A stretch of 29,561 nt of DNA from a virus: positions 1 through 29,561 of the IMG/VR virus record IMGVR_UViG_3300042523_000492; one strand, given 5' to 3'. The translations under genes were made by a program, and so were the position numbers. The notes beneath the pieces are model-generated. The model was not told the origin of the DNA. It made no database searches and worked only from the letters and a program-made list of their open reading frames with translations. This document shows positions 1-28,813 of this stretch, one piece after another. Position 1 is the first letter of the stretch. Each line of letters starts with the position of its first letter.

Positions 1-218
1 ACCTGATCGGCGCCGACCTGCGCGGCGCCAACCTGCGCGGCGTCAATCTGCGCGACGCCGACATGAGCGGCGTCAACCTGCGCGACGCCAACCTGAGCGG
101 CGCCAACCTGCGCGGCGTCAATCTGCGCGACGCCGACCTGAGCGACGCCAACCTGCTCGGCGCCGACCTGAGCGGCGCCAACCTGAGCGACGCCGACCTG
201 AGCGGCGCCGCTCTCTAA
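1..218 (+). CDS. Pentapeptide-repeat protein, C-terminal part (5' end outside window)
   Basis: The reading frame is open from the left edge and stops at TAA 216-218, giving 71 visible residues. These are 14 uninterrupted pentapeptides of the A(D/N)LxG type, for example [15 protein letters not shown] and LSDAD, which is the signature of the right-handed quadrilateral beta-helix family. Family members include the DNA-mimicking gyrase protectors Qnr and MfpA, but many have no known role, so the function here is not assigned. There is no C-terminal cap or dimerisation helix after the last repeat; the protein ends in Ala-Ala-Leu. The coding sequence is itself a near-perfect 15-base repeat and is much more GC-rich than the genes that follow, which suggests recent repeat expansion or acquisition. 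The family call is secure; length, start and role are unknown. Confidence 0.85.
3..212 (+). repeat. 15-base tandem repeats encoding the pentapeptides
   Basis: Fourteen consecutive 15-base units follow the pattern CTG-(C/A)GC-G(G/A)C-G(C/T)C-(G/A)A(C/T). Conservation is strong at synonymous positions as well as in the protein, so the DNA repeats have probably expanded by slippage or unequal recombination. One unit begins with ATG instead of CTG. Confidence 0.85.
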
Positions 219-10481: not shown

Positions 10482-10825
10482 AAATCCAACTACCCAACCT
10501 TGAACCCTGTGCCAAAGCCCGCCCCCGTGTCACAGCACGGGGAACGTACATGCCGAAACGCTACCAAGACTGGCGCAAGAAGTTCGTGGCGATGTGGCGT
10601 GCCACGGTTCCGCACTACCAATGGAACGAACCCGTGTGTATTAGCGTGCGGTGGACTACTACGACCGGCAAGTGTAAGCCGGACCTGGACAACGCGATTG
10701 CTGCCGTTTTCGATGCGTTGCAAGACGCAGGCGCGTTGTCGAATGACTCGCTTGTGCGGTCAGGAAGTTTCCGTATCGACGTAGGCCCGTTGGCGACCTA
10801 CGTTGAGATCACTCCTCACGTGTGA
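10478..10825 (+). CDS. rusA: RusA-family Holliday-junction resolvase
   Basis: A 115-residue protein, close to the length of E. coli RusA (120). It has the early basic motif KARPRVTARG and the conserved core KPDLDNAIAAVFDALQDAGA followed by SNDSLV. The acidic residues D69, D71 and D90 align with the catalytic D70, D72 and D91 of E. coli RusA. RusA is a dimeric endonuclease that cuts four-way junctions; in phages it resolves recombination and replication intermediates before packaging. The start overlaps the previous stop (ATGA). It is the last gene of the rightward operon and its 3' end overlaps the convergent 1493-residue gene by 17 bases. Confidence 0.9.
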   Translation: MKIQLPNLEPCAKARPRVTARGTYMPKRYQDWRKKFVAMWRATVPHYQWNEPVCISVRWTTTTGKCKPDLDNAIAAVFDALQDAGALSNDSLVRSGSFRIDVGPLATYVEITPHV

Positions 10826-13800
10826 ATTGTTCTACAATACGTTTAGCGTCGCTATCATGGCGCATGATGTAGCGACGCGCCTTTAACGGCATCGCTTCAA
10901 GGATCGCGTCCATGCGCTTAGTTCCGAAAGTGCTTACATAGGGAAGCCTACCCAAGAACTTCTTTTTGTCGGCTTCGCTAAGCGTAGGTAGGTAGCTACT
11001 CAAGACGGCTTGTGCGCCGTCTTCGTCGCCTGCAAGTAGGCGCTTACGGAAGTCAGAACGCGCTTTGCCGTCGTCCGATTGTTCTGCTGCCCCCATACGG
11101 CTTCCGTAGAGCTTTGAAGCGGTGCTATACATAATCTGCTGCGCTAGTTTTCCGCCGCGATCATCACTGGACAATGCTTCTTTAACACGCCGCGCCGCAG
11201 GGAACAGCCGCGACGGCTCGCCTTTGCTTGCCGCTGTGTGTATCAGGTTTCCGACCATAACAGGCCACGACAACATGGATGCCACAGCTACGCCTGGATT
11301 AGCAGAATCGCGACTCATGTAGTTGAGCATGCTACCTGGAACAGCTCCGCCTACGACGTTGGCCAAAAGAGGAACGTTTGACTCTTTGCTTTCCCAAAAC
11401 ATCCCCAAAGCGGATATGCCGTAGGTAAGCGCGCCACTGATGGCGGTTGCGGCGGATGCGCTGACGCCAAGACCTGCGGCAGATTGAGCCAGCATAGCCG
11501 ATGCGGTTGCTAATCGTACGCGCATAGGCGCTTTTTCGTTGGCCATGATGGCCTTGGCTCCGTCTATCGTGCGTAACATATTACGAACGCGGTTTTCACC
11601 GTAACGGCGGAAGAGCGCCCCCATCGTGTTAACTATCTCAAGCCGCGATCCGCGAGCCGTCTGTGCAAGATTCTTTTTAGCGCCGGTCATGTTCTCTGCG
11701 ATCATAGTCGCCAAGACTTTAACGTCTGTGTCCGATGCGCGTTTTTCACGGAAGCGCGCCTGCATTTCAGGCGATACCCGATTCGCGGTCAAAAAGCCTT
11801 CATCGAGTAAAGTTACGCCCTCTTCTTGCATATGTTTAGCCCACGCACGACCCCCCTCATAGCCTACCGTGTGCGTATAGCGGTTAACGGCATTACGTCC
11901 GGCTGCGCGTTGAACCCCTGCTGCAAAGTTGCCGGTAGCTTGAGTCGCAGCACCGCGCAAATCTACGCGGTTTTTAACGTCAGCATCAAGACCTCCCTCA
12001 GCCACTGCTCGCTTGTTACGAACAGCACTGTTTGCAATTCCCTCTAGTGCGTAGCTCAGTGGAACGTGGTTGACGACATTAATTACTTCCGACACGTCGA
12101 TGGGGGCCGTTGCGCTAGTTAGCAGGGAGCCTACAACGCGCTTGGCGTTGTTGATACCCTCAACCGCGCCACGATCCCCGGCATTCCACCGCAACTCACC
12201 AAACCCATTGTAAGCATTGATAGCACGGACTACGGCAGCCTTTTGTGCGTCGGCAACACCGTCCAGTTGCGGCATCAGCTTACTCAGATCGCTAACGTCA
12301 ACAGCGCCGCCAAAAGCCTTGTAGAATCCGATACGCCGGGCAGTGCCTTCAAACGTACTGCGCACGTACCGTGACGGGTCTGTTTCTAGTAGGCGGATGT
12401 AGTTGTCGCCGTCGCGCAAGTGCGATGGAAACTCTTTGTACTTGCGCCCTATTTCCATGGGGTCGAGCCGCACTCCTGCACCCTTGCCGAGCGCATCTAA
12501 TCCAAAGAAATCCTTCTTTATCTGCTCAGGCGCTACGCCGTTAAGTTCGGACATAACGCGAACAAACTTAGATCCAAGGACGCTATCAGAACCGCTAGCC
12601 AGGATGCCGTGCGTGTCTCCCGTAAAGTGACGGATGAACACGTTCTTTCCGGTGCCTTTGCCAATCGGTACGCCTGCTGCGAGAGCTTCGTCGCGAGTAG
12701 ATTGGTTGGCTATATCTTTAGCATCGACAAACTGTTGGAGATTTTCAGGAACTTCTAGCTTGCCTTCAAGCATCATCTTCCAAGGGCTATTAGCGTACTC
12801 CTGCTTAGGGTCCATCGGCTTTGAAGGCTGATCGGCTTCGTGAAGTGCCTTGGCCTTCCTAACGTCCATGGTAGCTGCGCCAGTCCGTGCTGTCTCCATG
12901 GCTTTGTGCATACGCTGCTGTGCAATATGCGACTCTTCAATAGCTTGATTGATACGGTCCCCCGCATCACGCACGGGAGCCGAGCTACTGCGTTTGAGTC
13001 GATCCGTAGCGTCGTCGCCAATCATTTCCATGACGGTACGCACTGCGCGGCCTGTATGGGTACTATCTCCGCTCAGCGCCTCCGACGCATTATCTACTAT
13101 CCGACCGACGCCGCGCTTAGCTACCTTAGCAGCACGACCGACAGCCTTAACCCCAGCGACAAGCGGAATCGCCGGATTAATAGCTGCACCGGAGCGCGTT
13201 ACGTCACGACCTGCAACCCGGCGCGACAGGTTCTTGGCCGCTACATCGACACGATTCCTCTGATCTGGCGTCAGATCGGAGTACGCGACCGTCTCCTTAG
13301 GATCTACGGTCATGCGATCAGTTACTAGCCGCGCTTTTCCAGTGGCGGGTTCTACGAGATAGCGCGGCTCGGGGGCTTGAACCGGCGTTCCCTCCTGTAC
13401 CGGTTCTTTCTTAGGCAGCGTTGAGCCTTCCCCCTCGGGAATCTGACGCGTGTGCGCTACCTGTTCCGGCTCAAAAGTAATGTAGACGCGGTGTTTTACG
13501 CCTTTTGATTTAGCCGAGCGCCCGCCCCCGACATGCGTGATGCTGTCGTGGCCTAGTGCTTTAATGTAGTCCTGTACGAGGTCTTGCGCCTCGTAGCGGG
13601 GTATGTCGCCTACGTCATGCATTGTGTCTTCGATACGGCGCAATACCTCCTCGTTGGTCTTCACCCCCTTGAGATCGACATACGGACCTACGTGATCAAC
13701 GCCCGAAGGATTGGCTTTAAGAACTTTGTCCCACGCCGCGATGTCCGCTGGCCGATCCATATCGAGCGGATTTTTGACGTTTACCTTGGCTTCATAAACA

Positions 13801-15290
13801 CCAGGAGCGCCGCCTTTACCCTTTGACATATACTCTCCCGCTATGCCGGGGTCCTGCGTCCAGTATGTGCCGCCGCCCATCAGACCATACTCACCGCCGT
13901 AAGGGTCGAAATTGGTAAAGCCCGCCTTGCTGGTGCCGTGATACAATGTGTGTTCGCCCGCAGCACCTTCTGGCACCGCAGGCGCTGGCGGAATGTCGGA
14001 TAACGAACGCGAGGGCATTGCCTCACTTACTACTTCCGATGGGGGAAGTACTTCCGCAAGCGGCTGCGCTTCCGCATCGCGCTGTGCCATTTCGGCATCC
14101 TGTTGCGCTGGCTCGCGAGCATACGGCTTTTGATCAGCAGCGTTGAATGCTTCTCGATCTGCTGCCATACGCTCGCGCAGTATGCGATCAGCTACGGACG
14201 TATTATCAACAGCACCCGCAACGCCTTCGTATTGCGCTTGGCGAATGTCGGCATCTATTCTTGCGCGTTCGGAAGCTATTTCTGGCGTAGCTGAAAGCGC
14301 TTCTTGTGCTTTTGCTACGGCTTGCTGCTGCGCATTTTCAAGGTCGATACGCTTACTCACAGCAGCATCATTCGCAGCAGCGCCCGCCAAGGCGATATCT
14401 CCCTGCTGAGTGGCAAGGAGCTGATCCATGTTGACTTGGCGAGCGGCTTCCCCCTCGCGAATAGCCTTTGGTGCGCCGAGAGCCGCTGCGGCGCTTCCGA
14501 TAGCTCCGCCTGCGGCAGCACCGCCGATAGTTGCGCCTTTTAGCTGCTCAAGGCTGTAGCCCTTCTGCAATCCAGCATTAATATCCACGCCCTGCTGTGC
14601 GGTGTCTTGAGCGGCACCAAGCACGCCGCCTTCAACGGCATTTCCAGCAATGACTCGTGCTCCGCGAACACCGAGATTGCCCGCCGCTGGTCCTGCTATA
14701 CGCCCGGCAATACCAATGCTGCCCGCGCTATTAAGTGCGTTCTCTAAGGCAAAGCCCGCGCCTGCCGAGGCGCGAGCCTGCGAGGGTGTTCCGCCTTGGT
14801 CGATAATCTCGTTTCCGCGCTGTACTAGACCGCCTACTGCGCCGGGGAAACCGGCTGCCAGTCCGCCCGCTACGCCGCCAACGGGACCGCCTACCGCAGT
14901 TCCTGCGGCAGCACCGGCCAACGGGGCAAGCGTTTGCCCAGCCATCCCGCCAATCTGCGCGGCAAGCCCGCCGTCTCGATTCAATCGTTGCCGCTCACGG
15001 TTGCCCGCGTCAATTACATCTTGATCGCCAAGCATAGACACGGGGCGAACGACGCCCTCGTTGTATAGGGCATTCCCAAAAGCAGCAGCCGCGCCCTGTT
15101 GTTCTTGTGGGACAAGGCGACGACGCGCCGCATCGCTGAGGCCCGCCATGTGATTGGCATTCATCTTGACGCCAATACTAGATAGCGCCTGCGCTGCTAC
15201 CTGCATGGCCTCGCGGGGGTCAGGAGTCACGCCATCGATACGCGCTTCGTCCAAGAGATCGGAAATGACGCCATCGTAATCTATAGGCAT
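10809..15290 (-). CDS. Very large ejection-type virion protein (1493 residues) with ADP-ribosyltransferase-like domain
   Basis: ATG 15290 lies nine bases after the upstream stop. The N-terminal 110 residues are helical. Gly/Ala-rich membrane-like stretches lie at about 108-155 and 250-272. A Glu/Gln/Ala-rich linker precedes an ADP-ribosyltransferase-like domain at about 447-611: LYHGTSKAGF (449-458), GGGTYWTQDPGIA (472-484) and RVYITFEPEQVA (601-612). This H...Y...E/Q arrangement is the pattern of ARTs in phage polyvalent proteins. A long unassigned region follows, then another hydrophobic cluster (about 1262-1350) and a basic helical C-terminus. Size, composition and position after three smaller Gln/Ala-rich genes match podovirus ejection proteins (T7 gp16 is about 1300 residues). 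Inference: it is injected with the DNA and could modify a host target early. No lytic transglycosylase motif was seen. Confidence 0.75.
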   Translation of the reverse strand: MPIDYDGVISDLLDEARIDGVTPDPREAMQVAAQALSSIGVKMNANHMAGLSDAARRRLVPQEQQGAAAAFGNALYNEGVVRPVSMLGDQDVIDAGNRERQRLNRDGGLAAQIGGMAGQTLAPLAGAAAGTAVGGPVGGVAGGLAAGFPGAVGGLVQRGNEIIDQGGTPSQARASAGAGFALENALNSAGSIGIAGRIAGPAAGNLGVRGARVIAGNAVEGGVLGAAQDTAQQGVDINAGLQKGYSLEQLKGATIGGAAAGGAIGSAAAALGAPKAIREGEAARQVNMDQLLATQQGDIALAGAAANDAAVSKRIDLENAQQQAVAKAQEALSATPEIASERARIDADIRQAQYEGVAGAVDNTSVADRILRERMAADREAFNAADQKPYAREPAQQDAEMAQRDAEAQPLAEVLPPSEVVSEAMPSRSLSDIPPAPAVPEGAAGEHTLYHGTSKAGFTNFDPYGGEYGLMGGGTYWTQDPGIAGEYMSKGKGGAPGVYEAKVNVKNPLDMDRPADIAAWDKVLKANPSGVDHVGPYVDLKGVKTNEEVLRRIEDTMHDVGDIPRYEAQDLVQDYIKALGHDSITHVGGGRSAKSKGVKHRVYITFEPEQVAHTRQIPEGEGSTLPKKEPVQEGTPVQAPEPRYLVEPATGKARLVTDRMTVDPKETVAYSDLTPDQRNRVDVAAKNLSRRVAGRDVTRSGAAINPAIPLVAGVKAVGRAAKVAKRGVGRIVDNASEALSGDSTHTGRAVRTVMEMIGDDATDRLKRSSSAPVRDAGDRINQAIEESHIAQQRMHKAMETARTGAATMDVRKAKALHEADQPSKPMDPKQEYANSPWKMMLEGKLEVPENLQQFVDAKDIANQSTRDEALAAGVPIGKGTGKNVFIRHFTGDTHGILASGSDSVLGSKFVRVMSELNGVAPEQIKKDFFGLDALGKGAGVRLDPMEIGRKYKEFPSHLRDGDNYIRLLETDPSRYVRSTFEGTARRIGFYKAFGGAVDVSDLSKLMPQLDGVADAQKAAVVRAINAYNGFGELRWNAGDRGAVEGINNAKRVVGSLLTSATAPIDVSEVINVVNHVPLSYALEGIANSAVRNKRAVAEGGLDADVKNRVDLRGAATQATGNFAAGVQRAAGRNAVNRYTHTVGYEGGRAWAKHMQEEGVTLLDEGFLTANRVSPEMQARFREKRASDTDVKVLATMIAENMTGAKKNLAQTARGSRLEIVNTMGALFRRYGENRVRNMLRTIDGAKAIMANEKAPMRVRLATASAMLAQSAAGLGVSASAATAISGALTYGISALGMFWESKESNVPLLANVVGGAVPGSMLNYMSRDSANPGVAVASMLSWPVMVGNLIHTAASKGEPSRLFPAARRVKEALSSDDRGGKLAQQIMYSTASKLYGSRMGAAEQSDDGKARSDFRKRLLAGDEDGAQAVLSSYLPTLSEADKKKFLGRLPYVSTFGTKRMDAILEAMPLKARRYIMRHDSDAKRIVEQFTREE
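10846..10878. other. Long stem-loop at the convergence of the two operons
   Basis: GCGTCGCTA at 10846-10854 is perfectly complementary to TAGCGACGC at 10870-10878. Inside it TCATG (10855-10859) pairs with CATGA (10863-10867) across loop GCG, leaving only a TG bulge. This gives 14 base pairs starting 21 bases after the RusA stop and within the last codons of the convergent gene. The symmetry means both transcripts would fold. There is no strong U-tract on either side, so it is a candidate bidirectional pause, termination or 3'-end protecting element rather than a textbook terminator. Confidence 0.55.
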
Positions 15291-15299
15291 GGAATAACT

Positions 15300-16241
15300 C
15301 TACGGCTGTACGTCAGGAGTCACGCGGCTTTTGAGTTTATCCACAAAGCGCGACTTATAATCCCCCTTTGGAGGCTGCGGTTGAGCGCTCCCACCAAGTG
15401 CGCCTGCCGCTCCGCCCATTGCTTTAAGCTCCGCCAACTCCATTTCTAGATCCTGCAATGCCGGGTCTGGCTCACTTTCGTGCGCTTTTCTAGCTGCTGC
15501 AATGTTCTTAAGCGCGGTATCCCTTGAAGTAAGCCAGTCGTCTTGCTCCCCGAGCGTCATGCCTTCCGCTGAAAGTTTCGCCGTAATGCGCTGTTCTTTG
15601 TCTTTTTTAGCGTTATTGATTAGTTTTGTAAGCTCCTTTATGCGATTTTCGCGTGCTTGGGCAGCATCGCGCTCTTCTTGGGCACGCTGCGTATCTTCGC
15701 GAGTCCTCGTACGTTCTTCTGGCGTAGTGCCGTAGAACGGCTTCGATTCCATTTTCTGCGTCAAAGCCTGACGCGCATTGGCAGCAATCTGCGCCTCGGG
15801 GGTGTACTGTCGTGCGCCTTCGCCCCATCCAGGAGACGGATCGTTTGGCCCAAACCTACCGAAAGCCTCTTGAGGATTCGGGTCTTTAAATTCAGCAACG
15901 CCCTCTGGAACAACACCTCTGTCCAAGAACGCCATGTTTCTGCGATACTTAGCTTCTTCCTGTGCGCGCTGCCGATCTTCAAGAGCCAATTGATCCATGC
16001 GACCAAGTCGTGCCTGCTGTTCGCCATACCGGCGATCCTCAAGCGCCATCCGTGCATCAGCACGTTCCTGCGCCTGCTGACGTAGCGCCATCTCGGCAGT
16101 ATAGCGATCATCGGCCATGCGGTCTCGCTGGCCTTGGTATTGCAGTTCACCCTTGCGAGCAAACGACTGCCCGAGGCCCGATAGACCACGGGTCAACTGG
16201 TCGGCAATACCGCCAGGGGTCATAATGGCTTCAGGATTCAT
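15300..16241 (-). CDS. Putative ejection/internal virion protein, coiled-coil rich, 313 residues
   Basis: ATG 16241 overlaps the stop of the previous gene (ATGA) and has TGAGG six bases upstream. Residues about 45-105 are a long Gln/Arg/Ala-rich helix (RQQAQERADARMALEDRRYG), and a second charged helical region runs from about 185 to 275. The ends are low-complexity. There is no signal peptide or recognised domain. Its place between the Gly-zipper proteins and the giant protein suggests that it is one of the set packaged in the head and ejected. Assignment rests on composition and context. Confidence 0.6.
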   Translation of the reverse strand: MNPEAIMTPGGIADQLTRGLSGLGQSFARKGELQYQGQRDRMADDRYTAEMALRQQAQERADARMALEDRRYGEQQARLGRMDQLALEDRQRAQEEAKYRRNMAFLDRGVVPEGVAEFKDPNPQEAFGRFGPNDPSPGWGEGARQYTPEAQIAANARQALTQKMESKPFYGTTPEERTRTREDTQRAQEERDAAQARENRIKELTKLINNAKKDKEQRITAKLSAEGMTLGEQDDWLTSRDTALKNIAAARKAHESEPDPALQDLEMELAELKAMGGAAGALGGSAQPQPPKGDYKSRFVDKLKSRVTPDVQP

Positions 16242-17095
16242 GCAGACCTCATATCATAGCCCGACATGTCGGAGTTACGGTACTGTTGATTAGGAGTTAA
16301 AGCCGGGTTGCCATACGCCTCGTTACGCAAGTTAGCCTGACGCTGCGCACTACCGTAGGCATTGGCAAGCTGCAAGGCGCTATTGGCGAATCCGCCGTAC
16401 ATCATCTGCTCGCTACCGGCATTCTGTGCGCGAGCGCGGGCGTTGCCGTAGTTCGCTTCTGCAATAGCGCGGTCACGATTGCTCAACGCAGATCCGACCC
16501 CGGCCTGCTGCTCGAACAGGTCGCGCTCACGACTAAGCGCACTAGTCGCAGTTTCGTAGTTACGGTTGTTAGCGTCACCAGCAAAGTCCTGCTTGCTCGT
16601 TGAGTAGTCCAGCGCCATTGAGTTAACGCTATTGCCCACGCGCTGATTCATTTCTTGCTGGTACTGCCCGGCAAGTGGACCCGCCAACGCAGGGGTTGGA
16701 GCCTGTGCAGCGTAGAGGGCTGACGATTGGTCTGCGGCATCCTGCTGCAAAGATGCTGATTGATCACCGGGCTTCTGGCCCATGTAGGTCTGAAAGTTAG
16801 TGTTCGCCTGTTGGCTCTGCTGAGTAAGCAAAGCCTCTCGTTGTGCGTTGCGTGCCAGCTCTTGCTGTTGGTACTGTGCAAGGGCCGCTTGGTATTTACG
16901 CCGTGCTTCGGCCTGTGCTTTACGGCGCTTCTTTGCGCCCATTCCACCAAGGTATCCAGACGCGCCGCCGACAAGAGCGCCAACGCCAGCGCCTACGGCT
17001 GTGCCAACACCAGGCGCGATCATTGTGCCTGCTACAGCTCCTGACGCTGCTCCACTTGCCGCACCTGCGCCCGCTGCACCGTATTCATCAGCCAT
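16238..17095 (-). CDS. Putative ejection protein with N-terminal glycine-zipper membrane segment, 285 residues
   Basis: A strong GGAGG lies seven bases before ATG 17095, and the start overlaps the previous TAA by one base. Residues about 6-52 are a Gly/Ala-rich glycine-zipper stretch (GAGVGALVGGASGYLGGMGA) that could insert in a membrane. It is followed by KKRRKAQAEARRKYQAALAQ and a long Gln/Asn/Ala-rich helical region. This layout is common in phage internal virion proteins thought to build the DNA-ejection channel across the cell envelope. No enzymatic motif is seen. The role is inferred. Confidence 0.65.
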   Translation of the reverse strand: MADEYGAAGAGAASGAASGAVAGTMIAPGVGTAVGAGVGALVGGASGYLGGMGAKKRRKAQAEARRKYQAALAQYQQQELARNAQREALLTQQSQQANTNFQTYMGQKPGDQSASLQQDAADQSSALYAAQAPTPALAGPLAGQYQQEMNQRVGNSVNSMALDYSTSKQDFAGDANNRNYETATSALSRERDLFEQQAGVGSALSNRDRAIAEANYGNARARAQNAGSEQMMYGGFANSALQLANAYGSAQRQANLRNEAYGNPALTPNQQYRNSDMSGYDMRSA

Positions 17096-17847
17096 TAGCC
17101 ACCTCCGTAGTAGTTAGCCGCTGCTCCAATTCCAGTACCGATAGCCTGACCGTAGAGCTGGCTCATATTGTTCTGATAGCTCTGTTCGTCTTGCATGCGC
17201 GACTGCTCAAGAGCGGCGTTGTTAGCGTACCCGCCGCCCTGGATGTTGGCGCTGTTGGCCATGTTCTGTGCGAGAGCATTCGTGTAGGGGTTGCTGTTCT
17301 GCTGCATGCGAAGCGACTGCGCCTGCGACTGATCATTACGGCGAAGGCCCTGCACGTAGTTCTGGTTCTGCTGCGCGGCCTGCGAGTCACGAAGCGCCTT
17401 TTCAGCGCCGAGAGTGGCGGTGTTGTACTGCTCTTGCGAACCTTTGCTGGTACCGCGCGACGCGTGCTGAAGCTGCATGCGCTTAGCCGCGTCGGCATAC
17501 GCTTGCTGATTGCTGGCTTGTGCCGCTTGGTTCTTAGCTTCGTACAGCGAAGCATAGTACGGGTTGCGGGATTGCTCCCACTGGTTGATCTGGTTGACAC
17601 GATCCGTGCGCTGTAGCTGGTCTTTGTACTGGGCTTGCGCTAGCTTGTACTGCTCCTTTGACCAAGCGGGTCCACCTTGCGCCATACCGCCTTGCTCTTG
17701 GTTCATGTACCAATCGCGTTCAGGTTGCGAGAGCTTGCTGTACTCGTCGTAAGATTGCGTCTGCTTGCCGACAAACGCAGCCGGACCCCAAAGCCGTTCT
17801 AGTTCAGCTTTACGCGCCGCTTCTCTTGCAAGTAGGCTAGGACTCAT
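17095..17847 (-). CDS. Putative ejection/internal virion protein, Gln/Asn-rich, 250 residues
   Basis: ATG 17847 overlaps the stop of the small zinc-binding gene (ATGA), with GGAGAG upstream. The protein starts MSPSLLAREAARKAELERLWG and is unusually rich in Gln, Asn, Ala and Tyr. It ends with a short glycine-zipper-like helix (GQAIGTGIGAAANYYGGG). It resembles its downstream neighbour in composition and probably works with it in DNA ejection. No known domain is recognised. The biased composition opens long antisense frames here, which are not considered genes. Confidence 0.6.
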   Translation of the reverse strand: MSPSLLAREAARKAELERLWGPAAFVGKQTQSYDEYSKLSQPERDWYMNQEQGGMAQGGPAWSKEQYKLAQAQYKDQLQRTDRVNQINQWEQSRNPYYASLYEAKNQAAQASNQQAYADAAKRMQLQHASRGTSKGSQEQYNTATLGAEKALRDSQAAQQNQNYVQGLRRNDQSQAQSLRMQQNSNPYTNALAQNMANSANIQGGGYANNAALEQSRMQDEQSYQNNMSQLYGQAIGTGIGAAANYYGGG

Positions 17848-21570: not shown

Positions 21571-23015
21571 GAATTGCCCACTTGCAGACGGAAGCTGAAC
21601 CCGTCCATCTGCCACGGCAGCGTGCCGGTCATCTTCGGGCTGATGGCGTCGGCAACGATGGTCAGCGGGATGTGGTTAATGCCGATGGTGCTGCCCGTCA
21701 CGGTAGGGCCGGGGTGGATTATCGCTTCGTTCCTGACGTTCGGGTAGATGGTGAGGTTCTGTGTTCCCGATTGCTGCGTTTCATAGGCAATCCATTGCTT
21801 CTTACGCCCTGGTTCCCCCGCGTAGAGATATGGGAATCGCGCCGTCCAAGCATAGCCGCTTTCTCCTGAATAGGCGTTGTCAAACACGTAGACCGTGTTG
21901 CCGCTGCGCACGTAGACCTTACCGCGGAACTCAACCATGTGGGTAATCGTGAACGGCAACGTGTACTTGGTCCAGCCCTTTACGTCTGCTTGCCGCGAAT
22001 TGGTCATGACGTACATAACCGAGCCGACAGCACACAGATACTGCGCACGAGAAGACGACCACAGCGACACGAGCTGCACCGCCGACGTGTCAATAAGCAC
22101 CGTCTCGGCTTGGATGTTAGCCCCGATGTCGCCGTCTTCAGCTTGGCCAGATGACACCGCCACGCTTAGGCTACGAAAGCCGCCTTGTGCAAAGTAGATC
22201 GAATCGCCCATCATGTTGGCAACCGATCCGCTTTGATCCGTACCCGCGCCGCCGATGATGTCAGAAACTTCGTTATCGGCAGGATCGGTAAAGAACCCCC
22301 ATAGCTGCACGTTATCGCGGAAGAATACCGCCAACTTGTTGCCAAAGTACGAGAAGCCGCGCACCTCGGGGTCGCCGTTCACATGCTGCGTAACTGGCAA
22401 ATACCCCGCATCGCCGCTGGTGCTCCAATCGGTTGGGCCGTTGATCGATGACGAGTACCATACGTCATTGGTCGATTGATCGTGCGAGATCAGCTTGCGC
22501 GACATGGCGAACAAGAACGGCCCCGGCGTGAACGGGGTCGTGACCGCCGTCTTACCAATCACCGCAATGCTGTAGGTCGATACTTCGGGGATGTAGTGGT
22601 GCTCGTACTGGAAGCCAAGGCCCGGGTTTGCCGGATCAAGGTACTTCTCAATTACGACGTACGGCACTCGGTCCCATACCTGCGATGCCGTCAGCCGTAA
22701 TGCCGTACCGAGATCGCCGCCAGTCGCCCGATTGCTGAACCAATCGTAGCGCATGCCGGGAGGTGGATTTGTAAAAACCCCCGATGCTGGCACCGGAAGA
22801 GCCGTACGCAAAAACCCATTAGCGACGTACAGGCCGAGACTCGTGGAATCCAGCACGGCAAAGGGTCGCAACTGCGCACGCGACCTCAAGCCGCCGCCCG
22901 TGGTCAAATCCAGATTCGTCGCTTCGCGCAACGAGTTGGGTGCGCTGGCATCGACACCGCGACGAAGATCGAGGCCGACAAAGTCGCCTACGGTTACGAC
23001 AGGTGGTTCACCCAT
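21567..23015 (-). CDS. Tail hub / packaged-DNA stabilisation protein (P22 gp10-like)
   Basis: ATG 23015 (TAATG overlap with the adaptor gene) is preferred to TTG 23030; this gives 482 residues. After the strand VGDFVGLDLRRGVD the protein is a large beta-structure with WYSSSINGPTDWSTSGDAG, GNKLAVFFRDNVQLWGFFTD and GVDA-type repeats. This is the layout of the P22 gp10 'phage stabilisation' family (GNRxVFFRxNSVQ-like motif), which forms the hexameric tail nozzle that closes the portal after packaging. Position directly after the gp4-like adaptor fits. Family call by pattern memory only. Confidence 0.7.
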   Translation of the reverse strand: MGEPPVVTVGDFVGLDLRRGVDASAPNSLREATNLDLTTGGGLRSRAQLRPFAVLDSTSLGLYVANGFLRTALPVPASGVFTNPPPGMRYDWFSNRATGGDLGTALRLTASQVWDRVPYVVIEKYLDPANPGLGFQYEHHYIPEVSTYSIAVIGKTAVTTPFTPGPFLFAMSRKLISHDQSTNDVWYSSSINGPTDWSTSGDAGYLPVTQHVNGDPEVRGFSYFGNKLAVFFRDNVQLWGFFTDPADNEVSDIIGGAGTDQSGSVANMMGDSIYFAQGGFRSLSVAVSSGQAEDGDIGANIQAETVLIDTSAVQLVSLWSSSRAQYLCAVGSVMYVMTNSRQADVKGWTKYTLPFTITHMVEFRGKVYVRSGNTVYVFDNAYSGESGYAWTARFPYLYAGEPGRKKQWIAYETQQSGTQNLTIYPNVRNEAIIHPGPTVTGSTIGINHIPLTIVADAISPKMTGTLPWQMDGFSFRLQVGNS

Positions 23016-23716
23016 TACCAAGGATTCCAATCAGTACGCCAGTAGCGCGAGCCACGTAGGCGCAAGTTATCGTACACCACCGGAACATATCCGCGCATGC
23101 TGATAGCGCGAATCTCGCCCTGCTCTTGCGAAGTGCGTTGCAGGTAGCGCATGTGGTCGGCCATGTCGGCCTTGTAGTCACCGCCGAGGCCCGTGTGACG
23201 CTTCAACAGATACGCCGCACGCTGAATCAATGCTTCAGGATCAACGTTGGTGCGATCCGTCTCGGACAGCAAACTGGCCGGGTTCTGGTAGTACTCAATA
23301 ACCAGCGTCACCCACGTAGATGTCGGAGCCGGGTACAGGCGCAAGGCCCGATCCACAATTTCATAAGCATACGGCATGCCGCTTGTCTTGGTAATGTTCC
23401 GCAACTGTGCGCCGTGATAGGCGGTAAGGTCGAACTCATTCCCTGAGTCATTGATGACGGCAATACGCCCAAGCCGTGACATCAAGGCGTCATCCGGCGT
23501 GTCGTAGACGGCTTGATCCGTAATCAGGCTGTACGTTGCCCGCGTGCGCTGCGTCAGCCACGGCGCTTCAAGGTGCAATTCGCGCTGTGCTTTTCGCAGC
23601 AACTCGTCAACAAGCGGATAGGCGTCAGCCGCCTGCCCGCCTGAGACCGAGTAGCCGCCTCGCACCAACACGGAGTTGCGTAGTTCAACAAGCGTAGGTG
23701 CGAGGGCTTCGGGCAT
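23015..23716 (-). CDS. Head-to-tail adaptor (P22 gp4-like / tail accessory factor)
   Basis: A 233-residue protein starting two bases after the previous stop. The N-terminal half has helices (YPLVDELLRKAQRELHLEAP) and the pattern Trp, then YSLITDQAVYDTPDDA, followed by VINDSGNEFDLTAY. This is typical of podovirus adaptor proteins, which have an N-terminal helical bundle and the phrase Y-x-LP-x-D. The middle part has strands (LRLYPAPTSTWVTLVIEYYQ) and the C-terminus is helical. Such proteins form a dodecameric ring on the portal. The order portal, scaffold, coat, adaptor, hub supports the call. Confidence 0.7.
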   Translation of the reverse strand: MPEALAPTLVELRNSVLVRGGYSVSGGQAADAYPLVDELLRKAQRELHLEAPWLTQRTRATYSLITDQAVYDTPDDALMSRLGRIAVINDSGNEFDLTAYHGAQLRNITKTSGMPYAYEIVDRALRLYPAPTSTWVTLVIEYYQNPASLLSETDRTNVDPEALIQRAAYLLKRHTGLGGDYKADMADHMRYLQRTSQEQGEIRAISMRGYVPVVYDNLRLRGSRYWRTDWNPW

Positions 23717-24376: not shown

Positions 24377-25513
24377 TCAAGACGCCAATAGTACGATACT
24401 ATTCGCGTTCGGAGCCTTCGGCAGCAAGACGGCCTTGCTGTCGAGCGAGATACGGGTGACGCGAACGTCGCCAGCATCGGGCGGGAAGCTCATAACCTTC
24501 TTCTTGGCCGGGGCGTACGAGAGCTGCCACGTCTTGGTGTTCAGCATGTACATGCGGCGAGTCCACGAAGCGGCTGGGGCGAGCAGGGTATCCAGAACCT
24601 CAAAGGTCGGGTTGTGGATAATCGGGGTGCCTTCAAAGCTGACGCCGGTATCGGGGAAGCCGATGTCGGCCATACGCTTCTTATCGGCCAGCGTGGTCGT
24701 GAACTGGATGTTGTTCGTGGTGCAGTAATTAACGTAACGGTCGATAGCGCCAGCACCGGCCATGATGAAGTCAACGCCATCGGTGCCCATTTCCATGCCG
24801 CGAAGCGACAGGTTCGCCTGACGACGAGCGCGGGTGAGACCAGCACGCAGGGTGCCAGCAGCGCCGTAGGTCAAGCCGATTTCAGCGTAGTGCTGGAGTA
24901 CCGAGCTGGACGCGCGGAGCTTGGTACCGATAGAGCCGGTGGTGACGAGGCCGGTAGCAGCCGGGAACGGCAGGTACGCATCCAAGCCCTGGGCGAGCTT
25001 AGGATTAGCCGAGTTGTCGGACAGGAGCATCTGATCAAAGGAGATATCGAACTTGTCGTCCATCGCTTCGAGCTTGGCCATCCAGTAATCAACAAGCACC
25101 TGCGCCTGAGACTCAGAATCAACCTTGCCGATCTTGGTGCTGCGGGACTGATTAGGGACGATGGTCAGACCGCAAGCGGCTTCGATGTCCTCGTGGACGA
25201 ACTCTTGGCCCATGTGCAGATTGGCCCACTGGAACTGCGTTTCGAGTTCAATTGGCGACTCAGTAAAGCCGAGAACGTCACGACGCTCAAAGCCTTGCAG
25301 GTCGAATTCAGCGGTGAGCTGGTACTTGAGGATAGGGCCGTTGATACCGGCAGCCGAGACACCGGCAACAGGGGCCGAGCCTTCCAGCTTTTCCAGCAGG
25401 TTAAACCAAGGCATCGCTTTGCGATCAGCCTTGATCTGTTTCTTACGGTTGAGCACGCCAGGGTAGGCGGCGTAGGCGATGGATTGAAGAGCTTCGGGAG
25501 TGAAGGTAGTCAC
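24377..25513 (-). CDS. Major capsid protein
   Basis: GTG 25513 has AAGGA eight bases upstream and is chosen over a TTG at 25564, whose extra codons would run through a stem-loop; this gives 378 residues starting MTTFTPEALQS. Features typical of an HK97-fold coat protein include an N-terminal arm with NRKKQIKADRKAMPWFNLLE, a long central helix region (QAQVLVDYWMAKLEAMDDKF) and a C-terminal beta part with VSFEGTPIIHNPTFEVLDTL and MYMLNTKTWQL. The position after scaffold and portal supports the call. It forms the icosahedral shell. It is the only gene here bracketed by a leader stem-loop and a terminator, suggesting separate tuning of expression. Confidence 0.85.
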   Translation of the reverse strand: MTTFTPEALQSIAYAAYPGVLNRKKQIKADRKAMPWFNLLEKLEGSAPVAGVSAAGINGPILKYQLTAEFDLQGFERRDVLGFTESPIELETQFQWANLHMGQEFVHEDIEAACGLTIVPNQSRSTKIGKVDSESQAQVLVDYWMAKLEAMDDKFDISFDQMLLSDNSANPKLAQGLDAYLPFPAATGLVTTGSIGTKLRASSSVLQHYAEIGLTYGAAGTLRAGLTRARRQANLSLRGMEMGTDGVDFIMAGAGAIDRYVNYCTTNNIQFTTTLADKKRMADIGFPDTGVSFEGTPIIHNPTFEVLDTLLAPAASWTRRMYMLNTKTWQLSYAPAKKKVMSFPPDAGDVRVTRISLDSKAVLLPKAPNANSIVLLAS

Positions 25514-25534
25514 GAGACGATCCTTACCGCATAG

Positions 25535-25554
25535 CGGCGGGTTTGACCCCGCCG
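25535..25554 (-). promoter_or_regulatory. Leader stem-loop before the capsid gene
   Basis: CGGCGGG pairs perfectly with CCCGCCG (7 bp, all G-C) across a six-base loop. It lies 21 bases before the capsid GTG and ends about ten bases before the AAGGA ribosome-binding site. There is no U-tract, so it is not a terminator. A 5' stabiliser of the capsid mRNA after processing, or a translation enhancer, is possible. Confidence 0.5.
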
Positions 25555-25573
25555 ATATGGGCAAGGGTCGGGT

Positions 25574-26674: not shown

Positions 26675-28813
26675 TTATTGACCGAGGCGATTGCCCGGGT
26701 TGTTGGGAAGATTTTCAGGTGAAGGAACGCCGTCCATAGGGGGCGCTCCGCCCTCTTGGCCGCGTGATCCTTGCGCATTAGGGTCGCCGCCAGGCGCTGG
26801 CGCATTAGGCATTCCCCCTGGTTGCGCCATCATCGGATTCCAGAAATTGCGGATGTCTTCGGAGATGCCGCCAAGGGCCATGACCTTAGCCATCACGTTG
26901 CCGACATTGATGCCGGGGACGCTTTGCAACTTCATGAGAATGTCAGGGAAAGCCGTCCAAAACTGCATCTTTCCAGCGAAGTCCGGCGGTCCAGAAACAG
27001 CACCTTGAATTTCAATTTGGAAATTAACCGACAACTGCTCCGCCGATAGGGCGAGCCACACCGACTGCATGCCGCACATCGCCTTGATATTATCGGCGGG
27101 GAATACCTTAACGGCAACTTGCCCCATCCATTCCAGCAAGTCAGAGAACGTGCGGTTAAGCTGGGCTTGGCGACGGCTATTGGCTTTCTGCATGCCTTGG
27201 TTAGCAAGGGTCAGATCCGTAGCGACCTTGCCTTCGCCCTGCACGCCCATGCCCGTCAATGGCACGTTGGCCACCATCTGCATGTCAGCAACTACCTTGG
27301 AAGTGTCGTAGAGCCCCTGGTTATAGGGCGCTCCATTCATCTCCTTCATGTACTTGTTAACGTCGTCTGCCTTCTTGAGCATGACGGCTTGGAACGGCGC
27401 ACGGCCTTCAATGGCGTCAATATCGGCTTGATCCGCCGCACCGGCAGCGAGGGCAACCCACGGGTAACTAGCGCGTCGGCCCTGGCGGTCGTGCGTGCGA
27501 AGCAGGTTGTACTCGTCCTGAAGATCACGCTGCAACCGCACGTCCGAGATCGGCAAAGCCCGACCGGATACGCGATTGAAGTACACCGGAAACAGGCTGA
27601 ATGGATTTGATCCAACGGCCTGGAACACTTCGCTAGCGAGGAAACGACTGACGCCGTCAACCCACACGTAGCGACGCCCCATGACGCGGTGTTCCAGAGT
27701 CCAGACGGCACAGCGGTCATTGATCTGCTGGGCTTCAATGTCCGTGCGTTCATCCGGTCCGAGGATGCCCCAGCGGCGTTCAGTCTTCTTGCCGTCCGTC
27801 GTGTAAACCGTAATCGACTTGTACTCGTCCTGCTCTAGGGCGAACTTAGCGGCGATGTCTTCCTTCGACAGGTAGACGCGATACGCCATCCAAGCGCCGC
27901 GACGAAGCTCTTCCGGACGCTTAATGGACCAATCCCAGCGAACATCTTCCGGCAGCAACTGATCGACGCTAAAACCGAGATACCGCTCAAGCTCGGGGCA
28001 TCCCAGCAAATCTAGCTCTTCGCCATCGATGATCGCGGTCTTGCGCACGGTACGCGGATCAGTCGGATCTGGCACCATCTGCTCAGTAGGCATGCCGGTC
28101 ATGGGGTCCATGACGGTCTGCGGAATCATGGGCGGTTGCGCGATGATGCGATCCGCCATCCACACTTTGAGGGTGTGGTCCAAGTCCTTCAGCTTTTGAG
28201 CATCGGCGCTGTCATCGTTGAAGTCGCCGGCGGCCTTGGCTTCTTGAAGCCGCAGGTACTCAGCAACGTTTTCCTGCTGATCGTTGAAACGGTTCTGGCC
28301 GACAGGGTCTTTCAGGAAGTCTTCCTGTACGGATACCTTCAGCCACGCAATGCCGTTAGTCTGCGCATCTTGTGCGGCACCTTCCATCAATTCAGGAAGT
28401 CGCGTCTGCGTGATCATCCGATTGAGGAATAGCTCCATAGTCTCGGACATCGCCGTCATCGATGGATCGACAAGCCCGCCCGCCTGGGGCAGCACCTTGC
28501 ACGCTGCTTTAGGATCGTCTAAGCCAAGATTGGCAACTACCGTCTGCTGATTCTTGAGAACCTGATTGACGATAACCGTGTCTTGGTCTTTCGACCCAAT
28601 CAGCTCTTCCGCGACGTAGGCGCGGTCTTCCTGCATCTGCTCGAAAGCATCACGCAGAAACTGAGGGGTTTTAACGAGTTCGTTGAACTCCGTGATGAGC
28701 GCCCGCTCCGAGGCCGATGCCTCGGGGGTCTTCTCAGCAATAGGTTCGACTACTTCCGCCACTTCGGGGATGGCGGGGTCGACCGGAGTCATGGCGTCGG
28801 TGGAGGGGTTCAT
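26675..28813 (-). CDS. Portal protein (P22-like)
   Basis: A 712-residue protein close in length to P22 gp1 (725). ATG 28813 overlaps the previous stop (ATGA) and has AGGTAG seven bases upstream. The N-terminal domain contains DRAYVAEELIGSKDQDTVIV; the wing/stem region has YRVYLSKEDIAAKF, FPVYFNRVSGRALPISDVRL and then QRDLQDEYNLLRT, a hallmark of the family. The C-terminal crown part contains QAQLNRTFSDLLEWMGQVAV and a Pro/Gly-rich tail (PNAPAPGGDPNAQG) after about residue 660. It forms the dodecameric vertex ring through which DNA enters and leaves. The terminase genes usually found upstream are outside the window. Confidence 0.85.
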   Translation of the reverse strand: MNPSTDAMTPVDPAIPEVAEVVEPIAEKTPEASASERALITEFNELVKTPQFLRDAFEQMQEDRAYVAEELIGSKDQDTVIVNQVLKNQQTVVANLGLDDPKAACKVLPQAGGLVDPSMTAMSETMELFLNRMITQTRLPELMEGAAQDAQTNGIAWLKVSVQEDFLKDPVGQNRFNDQQENVAEYLRLQEAKAAGDFNDDSADAQKLKDLDHTLKVWMADRIIAQPPMIPQTVMDPMTGMPTEQMVPDPTDPRTVRKTAIIDGEELDLLGCPELERYLGFSVDQLLPEDVRWDWSIKRPEELRRGAWMAYRVYLSKEDIAAKFALEQDEYKSITVYTTDGKKTERRWGILGPDERTDIEAQQINDRCAVWTLEHRVMGRRYVWVDGVSRFLASEVFQAVGSNPFSLFPVYFNRVSGRALPISDVRLQRDLQDEYNLLRTHDRQGRRASYPWVALAAGAADQADIDAIEGRAPFQAVMLKKADDVNKYMKEMNGAPYNQGLYDTSKVVADMQMVANVPLTGMGVQGEGKVATDLTLANQGMQKANSRRQAQLNRTFSDLLEWMGQVAVKVFPADNIKAMCGMQSVWLALSAEQLSVNFQIEIQGAVSGPPDFAGKMQFWTAFPDILMKLQSVPGINVGNVMAKVMALGGISEDIRNFWNPMMAQPGGMPNAPAPGGDPNAQGSRGQEGGAPPMDGVPSPENLPNNPGNRLGQ

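What the first reader, a model, noticed from the sequence alone, without database searches (positions are those of the whole stretch)
13458..13952. ADP-ribosyltransferase-like domain inside a putative DNA-ejection protein
Seen: residues about 447-611 of the 1493-residue late protein carry LYHGTSKAGF, then GGGTYWTQDPGIA followed by AxxYM, and end with YITFEPEQVA. Known: the H...Y...E/Q order, the 'YHGT' start and the 'F-x-P-x-Q' end are the pattern of ART domains described in phage and mobile-element polyvalent proteins. Inference: if the protein enters the cell with the DNA, as large podovirus internal proteins do, the enzyme could modify a host protein, tRNA or DNA within the first moments of infection. 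T4 Alt is a precedent for an injected ART.
Basis: partly seen in the sequence, partly recalled or inferred. Interest (0 to 1): 0.75.

Follow-up and report, generated by a model that had tools for sequence, protein, structure and literature searches.

The report
Swappable ADP-ribosyltransferase in phage ejection protein
A short-tailed phage carries a real ADP-ribosyltransferase enzyme domain inside the large protein it probably shoots into the bacterium ahead of its DNA, and near-identical sister phages carry something else, or nothing, at exactly that spot, so the enzyme looks like exchangeable cargo aimed at the host.

Summary
The domain is real. Residues 445-617 of the 1493-aa minus-strand late protein match Pfam ART-PolyVal (PF18760; E 4.9e-10, above cut-off) and a leave-one-out profile of four homologues (168 bits; best of 500 shuffles 5). 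A confident model (pLDDT 83, pTM 0.80) is nearest in the PDB to cyanophage A-4L's pre-ejectosome protein, then to the anti-CRISPR ADP-ribosyltransferase AcrIF11, tankyrase and diphtheria toxin. H451, Y476 and an acidic E607 are present.

Flanking arms are 87-94% identical at the DNA level, but the slot between them holds an unrelated ~185-aa domain (low GC, also in a distant phage), an Ala/Arg-rich segment, or a ~57-aa linker. So it is a cargo slot in a mosaic protein.

Gene order (portal, scaffold, podovirus capsid, SU10-type adaptor ... Gly-zipper protein, coiled protein, 1493-aa protein) and hydrophobic segments on both sides of the slot fit a T7 gp16-like ejection protein with the slot facing the cytoplasm. 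The scaffold itself has no detectable homologue and its model failed.

ARTs in virion effectors are already described; the new part is the within-group exchange. Catalysis, target and injection are untested.

The parts
10809..15290 (-). 1493-aa late protein, last gene of the late operon; proposed gp16-like ejection protein
   Evidence: ORF and translation; synteny; no Pfam/PHROG match as a whole
13440..13958 (-). ART-PolyVal domain, residues 445-617
   Evidence: PF18760 E 4.9e-10; leave-one-out HMM 168 bits, envelope 445-617; AF2 pLDDT 82.6; Foldseek
13938..13940 (-). codon of H451 (YHGT), strand-1 NAD-site histidine
   Evidence: aligned in homologues; sequence
13863..13865 (-). codon of Y476 (GxYxT), strand-2 tyrosine
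   Evidence: invariant in homologues
13470..13472 (-). codon of E607 (F-E-P-E-Q), position of the family's catalytic D/E
   Evidence: D in L151, L143, L058; E in L152; H-Y-D stated for the family in PMC5512222
13404..14022 (-). exchangeable slot (about residues 424-629): no DNA match in any of seven relatives. Against the short-linker relatives the non-shared part is 13378-13981 (604 nt against 73 nt in L006)
   Evidence: blastn block edges; per-40-residue identity map; slot sequences
14023..14441 (-). conserved upstream arm of the slot (residues 284-423), 87-94% nt identity in relatives
13131..13370 (-). conserved downstream arm (residues 641-720), 82-97% aa identity in all close relatives, 55-77% in distant L011
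14442..15083 (-). second hypervariable block (residues ~70-283), Ala/Gly-rich with hydrophobic stretches 137-155 and 255-273
11241..11453 (-). C-terminal hydrophobic stretches (residues 1280-1298 and 1332-1350)
   Evidence: hydropathy
15300..16241 (-). 313-aa coiled, charged protein; proposed second ejection protein
   Evidence: translation; position; no relevant family match
16238..17095 (-). 285-aa protein with N-terminal Gly-zipper; proposed gp14-like membrane-pore protein
   Evidence: PF13441 E 1.8e-4, below its cut-off
17095..17847 (-). 250-aa Gln/Ala-rich late protein next to the ejection genes
   Evidence: no family match
23015..23716 (-). SU10-type head-tail adaptor
   Evidence: PF24175 E 4.1e-12
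24377..25564 (-). podovirus-type major capsid protein
   Evidence: NF033394 capsid_maj_Podo, 86.6 bits over cut-off 80
26675..28813 (-). portal protein
   Evidence: tblastn to annotated portal of Microcystis phage Mae-Yong1326-1 E 3e-10

Best explanation
The domain is a catalytically competent PolyVal-type ADP-ribosyltransferase carried as exchangeable cargo in the middle of a T7 gp16-like ejection protein of a podovirus. Proposed mechanism: the protein is packed in the capsid, leaves through the tail before or with the DNA, and inserts its N- and C-terminal hydrophobic regions in the inner membrane. That exposes the linker-borne slot to the cytoplasm, where the ART uses host NAD+ to modify one host protein at the start of infection, most likely a defence component (AcrIF11-like) or a transcription/translation factor (Alt-like). 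Phages of the group swap the slot content by recombination between the conserved arms, as host defences change. Shown: ART family membership, fold and conserved H/Y/acidic residues; slot replacement between near-identical relatives; podovirus capsid/adaptor; late-operon position. Inferred: ejection, membrane topology, activity, target, and recombination through the arms as the way of exchange.
For: PF18760 above cut-off; leave-one-out HMM 168 bits; AF2 pLDDT 82.6/pTM 0.80; Foldseek PDB: 9k3a_B cyanophage A4 pre-ejectosome E 3.0e-8, AcrIF11 6kyf E 1.9e-4, then tankyrase, NatRT, ParT, diphtheria toxin; profile against PDB sequences finds PARP10 and cholix first (weak). 9k3a_B is A-4L ORF27, a virion protein with LYHGT..GSGTYFSK at 1422-1460. 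Slot replaced in 7/7 close relatives with 87-94% identical arms. Cargo B 67% identical between L002 and L011 although the C-terminal scaffold is 31-37% identical, and 40.9% GC against ~55%: movement of a cassette. Gene order as in A-4L, RHph_N65 and Microcystis phage; in the last, the protein in the same position has an LPD1 polyvalent domain. Hydrophobic stretches flank the slot as TMH I/II flank the cytoplasmic part of T7 gp16 (PMC8954989). T4 Ip1-3 are a precedent for a variable set of injected anti-defence proteins (PMC12373910).
Against: No experiment. The scaffold has no detectable homologue among solved or known ejection proteins and its model is unusable (pLDDT 44.8), so 'ejection protein' rests on gene order and architecture. 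Hydrophobic peaks are modest (mean 1.27-1.38). The ART occurs in only one of nine slots seen, so selection on its activity cannot be measured. Slot contents B and C have no known function. The DNA is a 29.6-kb fragment of an uncultured phage, host unknown.
Confidence: 0.6

Rival explanations
1. The ART fold is kept only as a structural or spacer element of the ejection protein and is catalytically dead; variation in the slot reflects tolerance of a flexible linker region to inserts rather than effectors.
For: Three relatives do with a ~57-aa linker, so the slot is dispensable for ejection; insert C is low-complexity and Ala/Arg-rich; a homologue, L086, has Ala at the acidic position.
Against: H451, Y476 and an acidic residue are all present here and across homologues at 35-47% identity; inactive copies would be expected to lose them. 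The same domain recurs in large phage proteins: 96 of 120 pattern hits lie in ORFs of 600 aa or more.
Confidence: 0.17
2. The protein is a late-expressed, non-injected (or only assembly-stage) protein, and the ART acts late in the producing cell, for example on host translation or against superinfecting phages.
For: It is in the late operon; no virion proteomics exist; the scaffold has no known homologue.
Against: Position next to tail and Gly-zipper proteins at the end of the late operon as in A-4L, where the equivalent protein is seen inside the virion (9k3a).
Confidence: 0.13
3. The ART modifies nucleic acid (DNA or tRNA) rather than protein, like DarT or some TA-system ARTs.
For: ARTs as a fold modify proteins, RNA and DNA (PMC5512222); TA-system ARTs NatRT and ParT are among the fold matches.
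Against: Best fold matches (AcrIF11, tankyrase, diphtheria toxin) are protein modifiers, and the Tox-ART-HYD2 clade is grouped with protein-modifying ARTs. Fold does not fix substrate.
Confidence: 0.1

Closest known systems
ART-PolyVal (Pfam PF18760; Tox-ART-HYD2-like ARTs of polyvalent proteins, Iyer et al. 2017, PMC5512222)
   Same: Sequence profile above cut-off, YHGT / GxYxT / F-[DE]-P-E-Q motifs, embedded in a large late phage protein.
   Different: Host protein shows no second recognised polyvalent domain; E instead of D at the third site (also E in L152); the domain is absent from the same slot in sister phages.
Anabaena (cyanophage) A-4L ORF27, pre-ejectosome protein, PDB 9k3a chain B
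   Same: Best fold match in the PDB (E 3e-8, TM 0.60 by query); ART-like motifs at 1422-1460; same kind of gene order, large gene near the end of the late operon.
   Different: No scaffold homology; its ART lies near the C-terminus, not mid-protein; PF18760 does not call it.
Roseovarius Plymouth podovirus 1 vRNAP (prototype of the family)
   Same: PF18760 domain inside a virion protein of a podovirus.
   Different: Fused to an N4-like RNA polymerase and a metallopeptidase-like domain; none of these here.
AcrIF11 (phage anti-CRISPR ART, PDB 6kyf; PMC12421852)
   Same: Second-best PDB fold match (E 1.9e-4); phage enzyme that modifies one host defence protein.
   Different: Free small protein made after infection; no sequence relation detected; key residues H-F-H-D.
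T4 Alt
   Same: Virion-packed, injected ART (literature): same proposed logic.
   Different: Different ART clade (R-S-E active site), free head protein, not a slot in an ejection protein.
T4 internal proteins Ip1-3 (PMC12373910)
   Same: Variable set of injected proteins that share only the packaging part and block different host defences.
   Different: Separate genes with a leader peptide; inhibitors, not enzymes.
T7 gp16 ejection protein (PMC8954989)
   Same: Size class, last of the ejection genes, hydrophobic regions on both sides of a large middle part.
   Different: No sequence homology detected; T7 gp16 carries an N-terminal transglycosylase, not an ART.

Membership tests
ART-PolyVal (PF18760) | Profile match above the curated cut-off | tested here: met
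   40.8 bits against 31.2, E 4.9e-10, positions 8-130 of 140
ART-PolyVal (PF18760) | ART fold | tested here: met
   AF2 pLDDT 82.6; Foldseek to PARP/diphtheria-type ARTs and to 68 viral models at E <= 0.001, many named ART-PolyVal
ART-PolyVal (PF18760) | H in strand 1, Y in strand 2, D in strand 5 (PMC5512222) | tested here: met
   H451, Y476 as in homologues; E607 in place of D, as in homologue L152. Conservative change; spatial position not measured.
ART-PolyVal (PF18760) | NAD+-dependent ADP-ribosyl transfer | not testable with these tools
   needs enzyme assay
Polyvalent protein (Iyer et al. 2017) | Several distinct effector or LPD domains in one polypeptide | tested here: inconclusive
   Only the ART is recognised; rest of the protein has no Pfam match; three relatives lack even that
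Podovirus gp16-like ejection protein | Gene at the end of the late ejection cluster, after gp14- and gp15-like genes, in a short-tailed phage | tested here: met
   capsid_maj_Podo, SU10 adaptor, Gly-zipper protein and coiled protein upstream, compare A-4L
Podovirus gp16-like ejection protein | Hydrophobic membrane regions on both sides of a middle domain | tested here: met
   res 137-155, 255-273 and 1280-1298, 1332-1350; moderate hydropathy, prediction only
Podovirus gp16-like ejection protein | Homology to a known ejection protein | tested here: not met
   no match by profile to PDB sequences or to A-4L ORF26/27; AF2 model too poor for fold search. So it is proposed to work like gp16, not filed as a homologue.
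Podovirus gp16-like ejection protein | Presence in the virion and entry into the cell | not testable with these tools
   needs virion proteomics and fractionation
Alt/VIP2 clade ART (T4 Alt) | R-S-E active site | tested here: not met
   H-Y-E motifs and PF18760 instead
AcrIF11 | Sequence family membership | tested here: not met
   AcrIF11 not among PDB sequence-profile hits; only the fold is similar

The most novel reading that the evidence does not exclude
Podovirus ejection proteins of this group carry a dedicated, cytoplasm-facing cargo slot bounded by conserved recombination arms, through which phages exchange injected early effectors (an ART here, other domains or nothing in sisters), so that each phage delivers a different pre-made weapon before any phage gene is expressed.
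Probability: 0.35. Interest if true: 0.75.

Novelty: new variant of a known kind. Interest (0 to 1): 0.52.

Why it matters
ARTs in virion-borne polyvalent proteins were proposed in 2017 to be injected effectors, but I found no report of a target for one. A phage group in which the ART is present, replaced or absent while the surrounding ejection protein stays nearly constant gives natural controls: the effector's benefit on different hosts could be read off closely matched phages. It also marks the middle of the largest ejection protein as a site that tolerates foreign domains, and gives a way to find other injected effectors: compare slot contents between close relatives.

Tried and rejected
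Whole-protein Pfam and PHROG scans found nothing; the domain must be cut out. ART-only tblastn of INPHARED and PLSDB: no useful match. ART-only pattern searches in viral contigs failed until a degenerate DNA pattern was used. The genome search with PF18760 on the relatives gave no match but also misses the window itself, so it was discarded; absence of ART in relatives rests on their slot sequences. Scaffold: no relative in GTDB genomes or INPHARED; profile comparison with A-4L, L143, L151, L153 negative; AF2 unusable, so the third fold search was not spent. Cargo B found nowhere else in IMG/VR or INPHARED; cargo C not in INPHARED. PADLOC and NCBIfam: nothing for ART or cargos. Considered the LPD38 C-terminal domain of L153 as a relative of the scaffold C-terminus; not supported. 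The paper behind PDB 9k3a was not in the library, so whether its authors name the ART is unknown to me.

Full report
Observation. The finding's motifs lie on the minus strand in the ORF 10809-15290, 1493 aa; the plus strand of 13458-13952 has stops.

It is an ART. Cut out on its own, the segment matches Pfam PF18760, 'ADP-Ribosyltransferase in polyvalent proteins', E 4.9e-10, 40.8 bits over a cut-off of 31.2. The whole-protein scan misses it, probably a filter effect and worth knowing for annotation pipelines. An HMM built from four homologues without the window sequence gives 168 bits at residues 445-617; of 500 shuffles of the same protein the best scored 5.1 bits. The nearest sequences are in a Pantoea sp. 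18069 genome contig (47% over the domain, a 2825-aa ORF), a Bacteroidetes MAG (44%), and two phage contigs (41% and 35%). A six-sequence alignment gave an AlphaFold2 model with pLDDT 82.6 and pTM 0.80. Its best PDB match is chain B of 9k3a, 'Cyanophage A4 pre-ejectosome' (E 3.0e-8, TM 0.60 by query length), then AcrIF11 (E 1.9e-4), tankyrase, NatRT, ParT, PARP1 and diphtheria toxin; in the viral library it matches many proteins named ART-PolyVal. Sequence profiles against the PDB put PARP10 and cholix toxin first, weakly.

An ART in a solved pre-ejectosome. Chain B of 9k3a is ORF27 of Anabaena phage A-4L, a 1717-aa virion protein with GSLYHGTRVKGW...GSGTYFSKSSQAA at 1422-1460 and a profile match there of E 3.5e-5, probability 72%, although Pfam does not call it. 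So an ART-fold domain in a podovirus ejection protein, physically inside a virion, has a structural precedent. The prototype of the Pfam family is likewise a domain of a podovirus virion RNA polymerase (PMC5512222).

The slot. Seven IMG/VR contigs hold the same protein. By blastn they are 82-97% identical to the window over most matching late and early blocks, but window 13404-14022 has no counterpart in any. The per-40-residue map shows: residues 281-400 and 641-720 are 77-97% identical in the close relatives that cover them; residues 70-283 are hypervariable; residues 721-1493 come in two types (about 97% or about 45% identical); and residues 424-629 are the slot. Slot contents: the ART in the window; a ~185-aa domain 'B' in L002 and L003; an Ala/Arg-rich ~216-aa segment 'C' in L004 and L005; a 57-aa Pro/Ala/Glu-rich linker in L006, L007 and L008. 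In L006 the arms are 73 nt apart, in the window 604. B also sits at the same place in the distant L011, 67% identical to L002's B although the C-terminal scaffold is 31-37% identical, and B's GC in L002 is 40.9% against about 55% in the window's scaffold. A more conserved and foreign-looking insert on a diverged scaffold is what cassette transfer predicts; stronger constraint on B alone would explain the identity but not the GC. The ART's GC (55.6%) is like its surroundings, so its own arrival cannot be dated.

Is the carrier an ejection protein? For: podovirus capsid family NF033394, SU10-type adaptor PF24175, portal similar to that of a Microcystis phage, and an order portal-scaffold-capsid-adaptor-...-Gly-zipper protein-coiled protein-large protein like that of A-4L, RHph_N65, which annotates a 'putative injection protein', and Microcystis phage Mae-Yong1326-1, whose protein in this position carries a polyvalent LPD1 domain. 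Hydrophobic stretches lie at 137-155 and 255-273 and again at 1280-1298 and 1332-1350, echoing the two membrane regions around the cytoplasmic part of T7 gp16 (PMC8954989). Against: no homology to any known ejection protein, no useful model, no proteomics. I therefore say it is likely to work like gp16; I do not file it as a gp16 homologue.

Mechanism. If ejected with gp16 topology, the slot would face the cytoplasm, where NAD+ is. Known precedents are T4 Alt (injected, another ART clade), AcrIF11 (one specific defence target; PMC12421852) and T4 Ip1-3 (variable injected anti-restriction proteins; PMC12373910). The presence/absence pattern, with sisters living without it, fits a host-dependent benefit better than a housekeeping role, which is why I favour a defence target slightly over RNA polymerase. 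This last step is inference.

Breadth. Cultured relatives of the domain (found with the Pantoea homologue) are in Caulobacter phages Jess A, RapA, SR18 and BL94 and Pseudomonas phage F116, in large late genes where inspected, which makes tests practical.

Novelty. ART-PolyVal domains in virion proteins are known. What I have not seen described, within the library searched, is the exchange of the domain between near-identical podoviruses at a fixed slot with conserved arms. The sample is small (nine slots, one ART) and the contigs are metagenomic.

Noticed in passing
window 14442-15083 (residues 70-283): A second hypervariable block in the same protein: at least three dissimilar Ala/Gly-rich hydrophobic versions among relatives, while residues 1-40 come in two types (window identical to L008, 32% to others).
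   Followed up: partly
L002:11333-11887, L003:1200-1754, L011:2349-2897: Cargo B, a highly conserved ~185-aa domain of unknown function with low GC (41% in L002) found only in this slot in IMG/VR; a candidate injected effector.
   Followed up: partly
window 1-215 (+), frame 3: The cut-off start of the record encodes a pentapeptide-repeat protein ([16 protein letters not shown]...), seen as a 15-nt DNA repeat; a similar repeat is at L003 13749-13903.
   Followed up: no
L156 (A-4L ORF27), residues about 1290-1410: Sequence upstream of the ART-like domain in the A-4L ejection protein looks ParB-like by eye, suggesting an unannotated polyvalent architecture in a solved virion structure.
   Followed up: no
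L159 (Caulobacter phage Jess A, JessAGP_039c) and L160 (Pseudomonas phage F116, F116p60): Large late proteins annotated 'lysis protein' or 'hypothetical' contain an ART-PolyVal-like domain; cultured models for testing injected ARTs.
   Followed up: partly
L151, Pantoea sp. 18069 contig NZ_CACSJA010000044.1: Closest ART homologue (47%) in a 2825-aa ORF of a bacterial genome contig, possibly a prophage.
   Followed up: no
L011 about 13312-13896: Long simple repeat (reads as Ala-Val repeats in one frame) in the distant relative.
   Followed up: no
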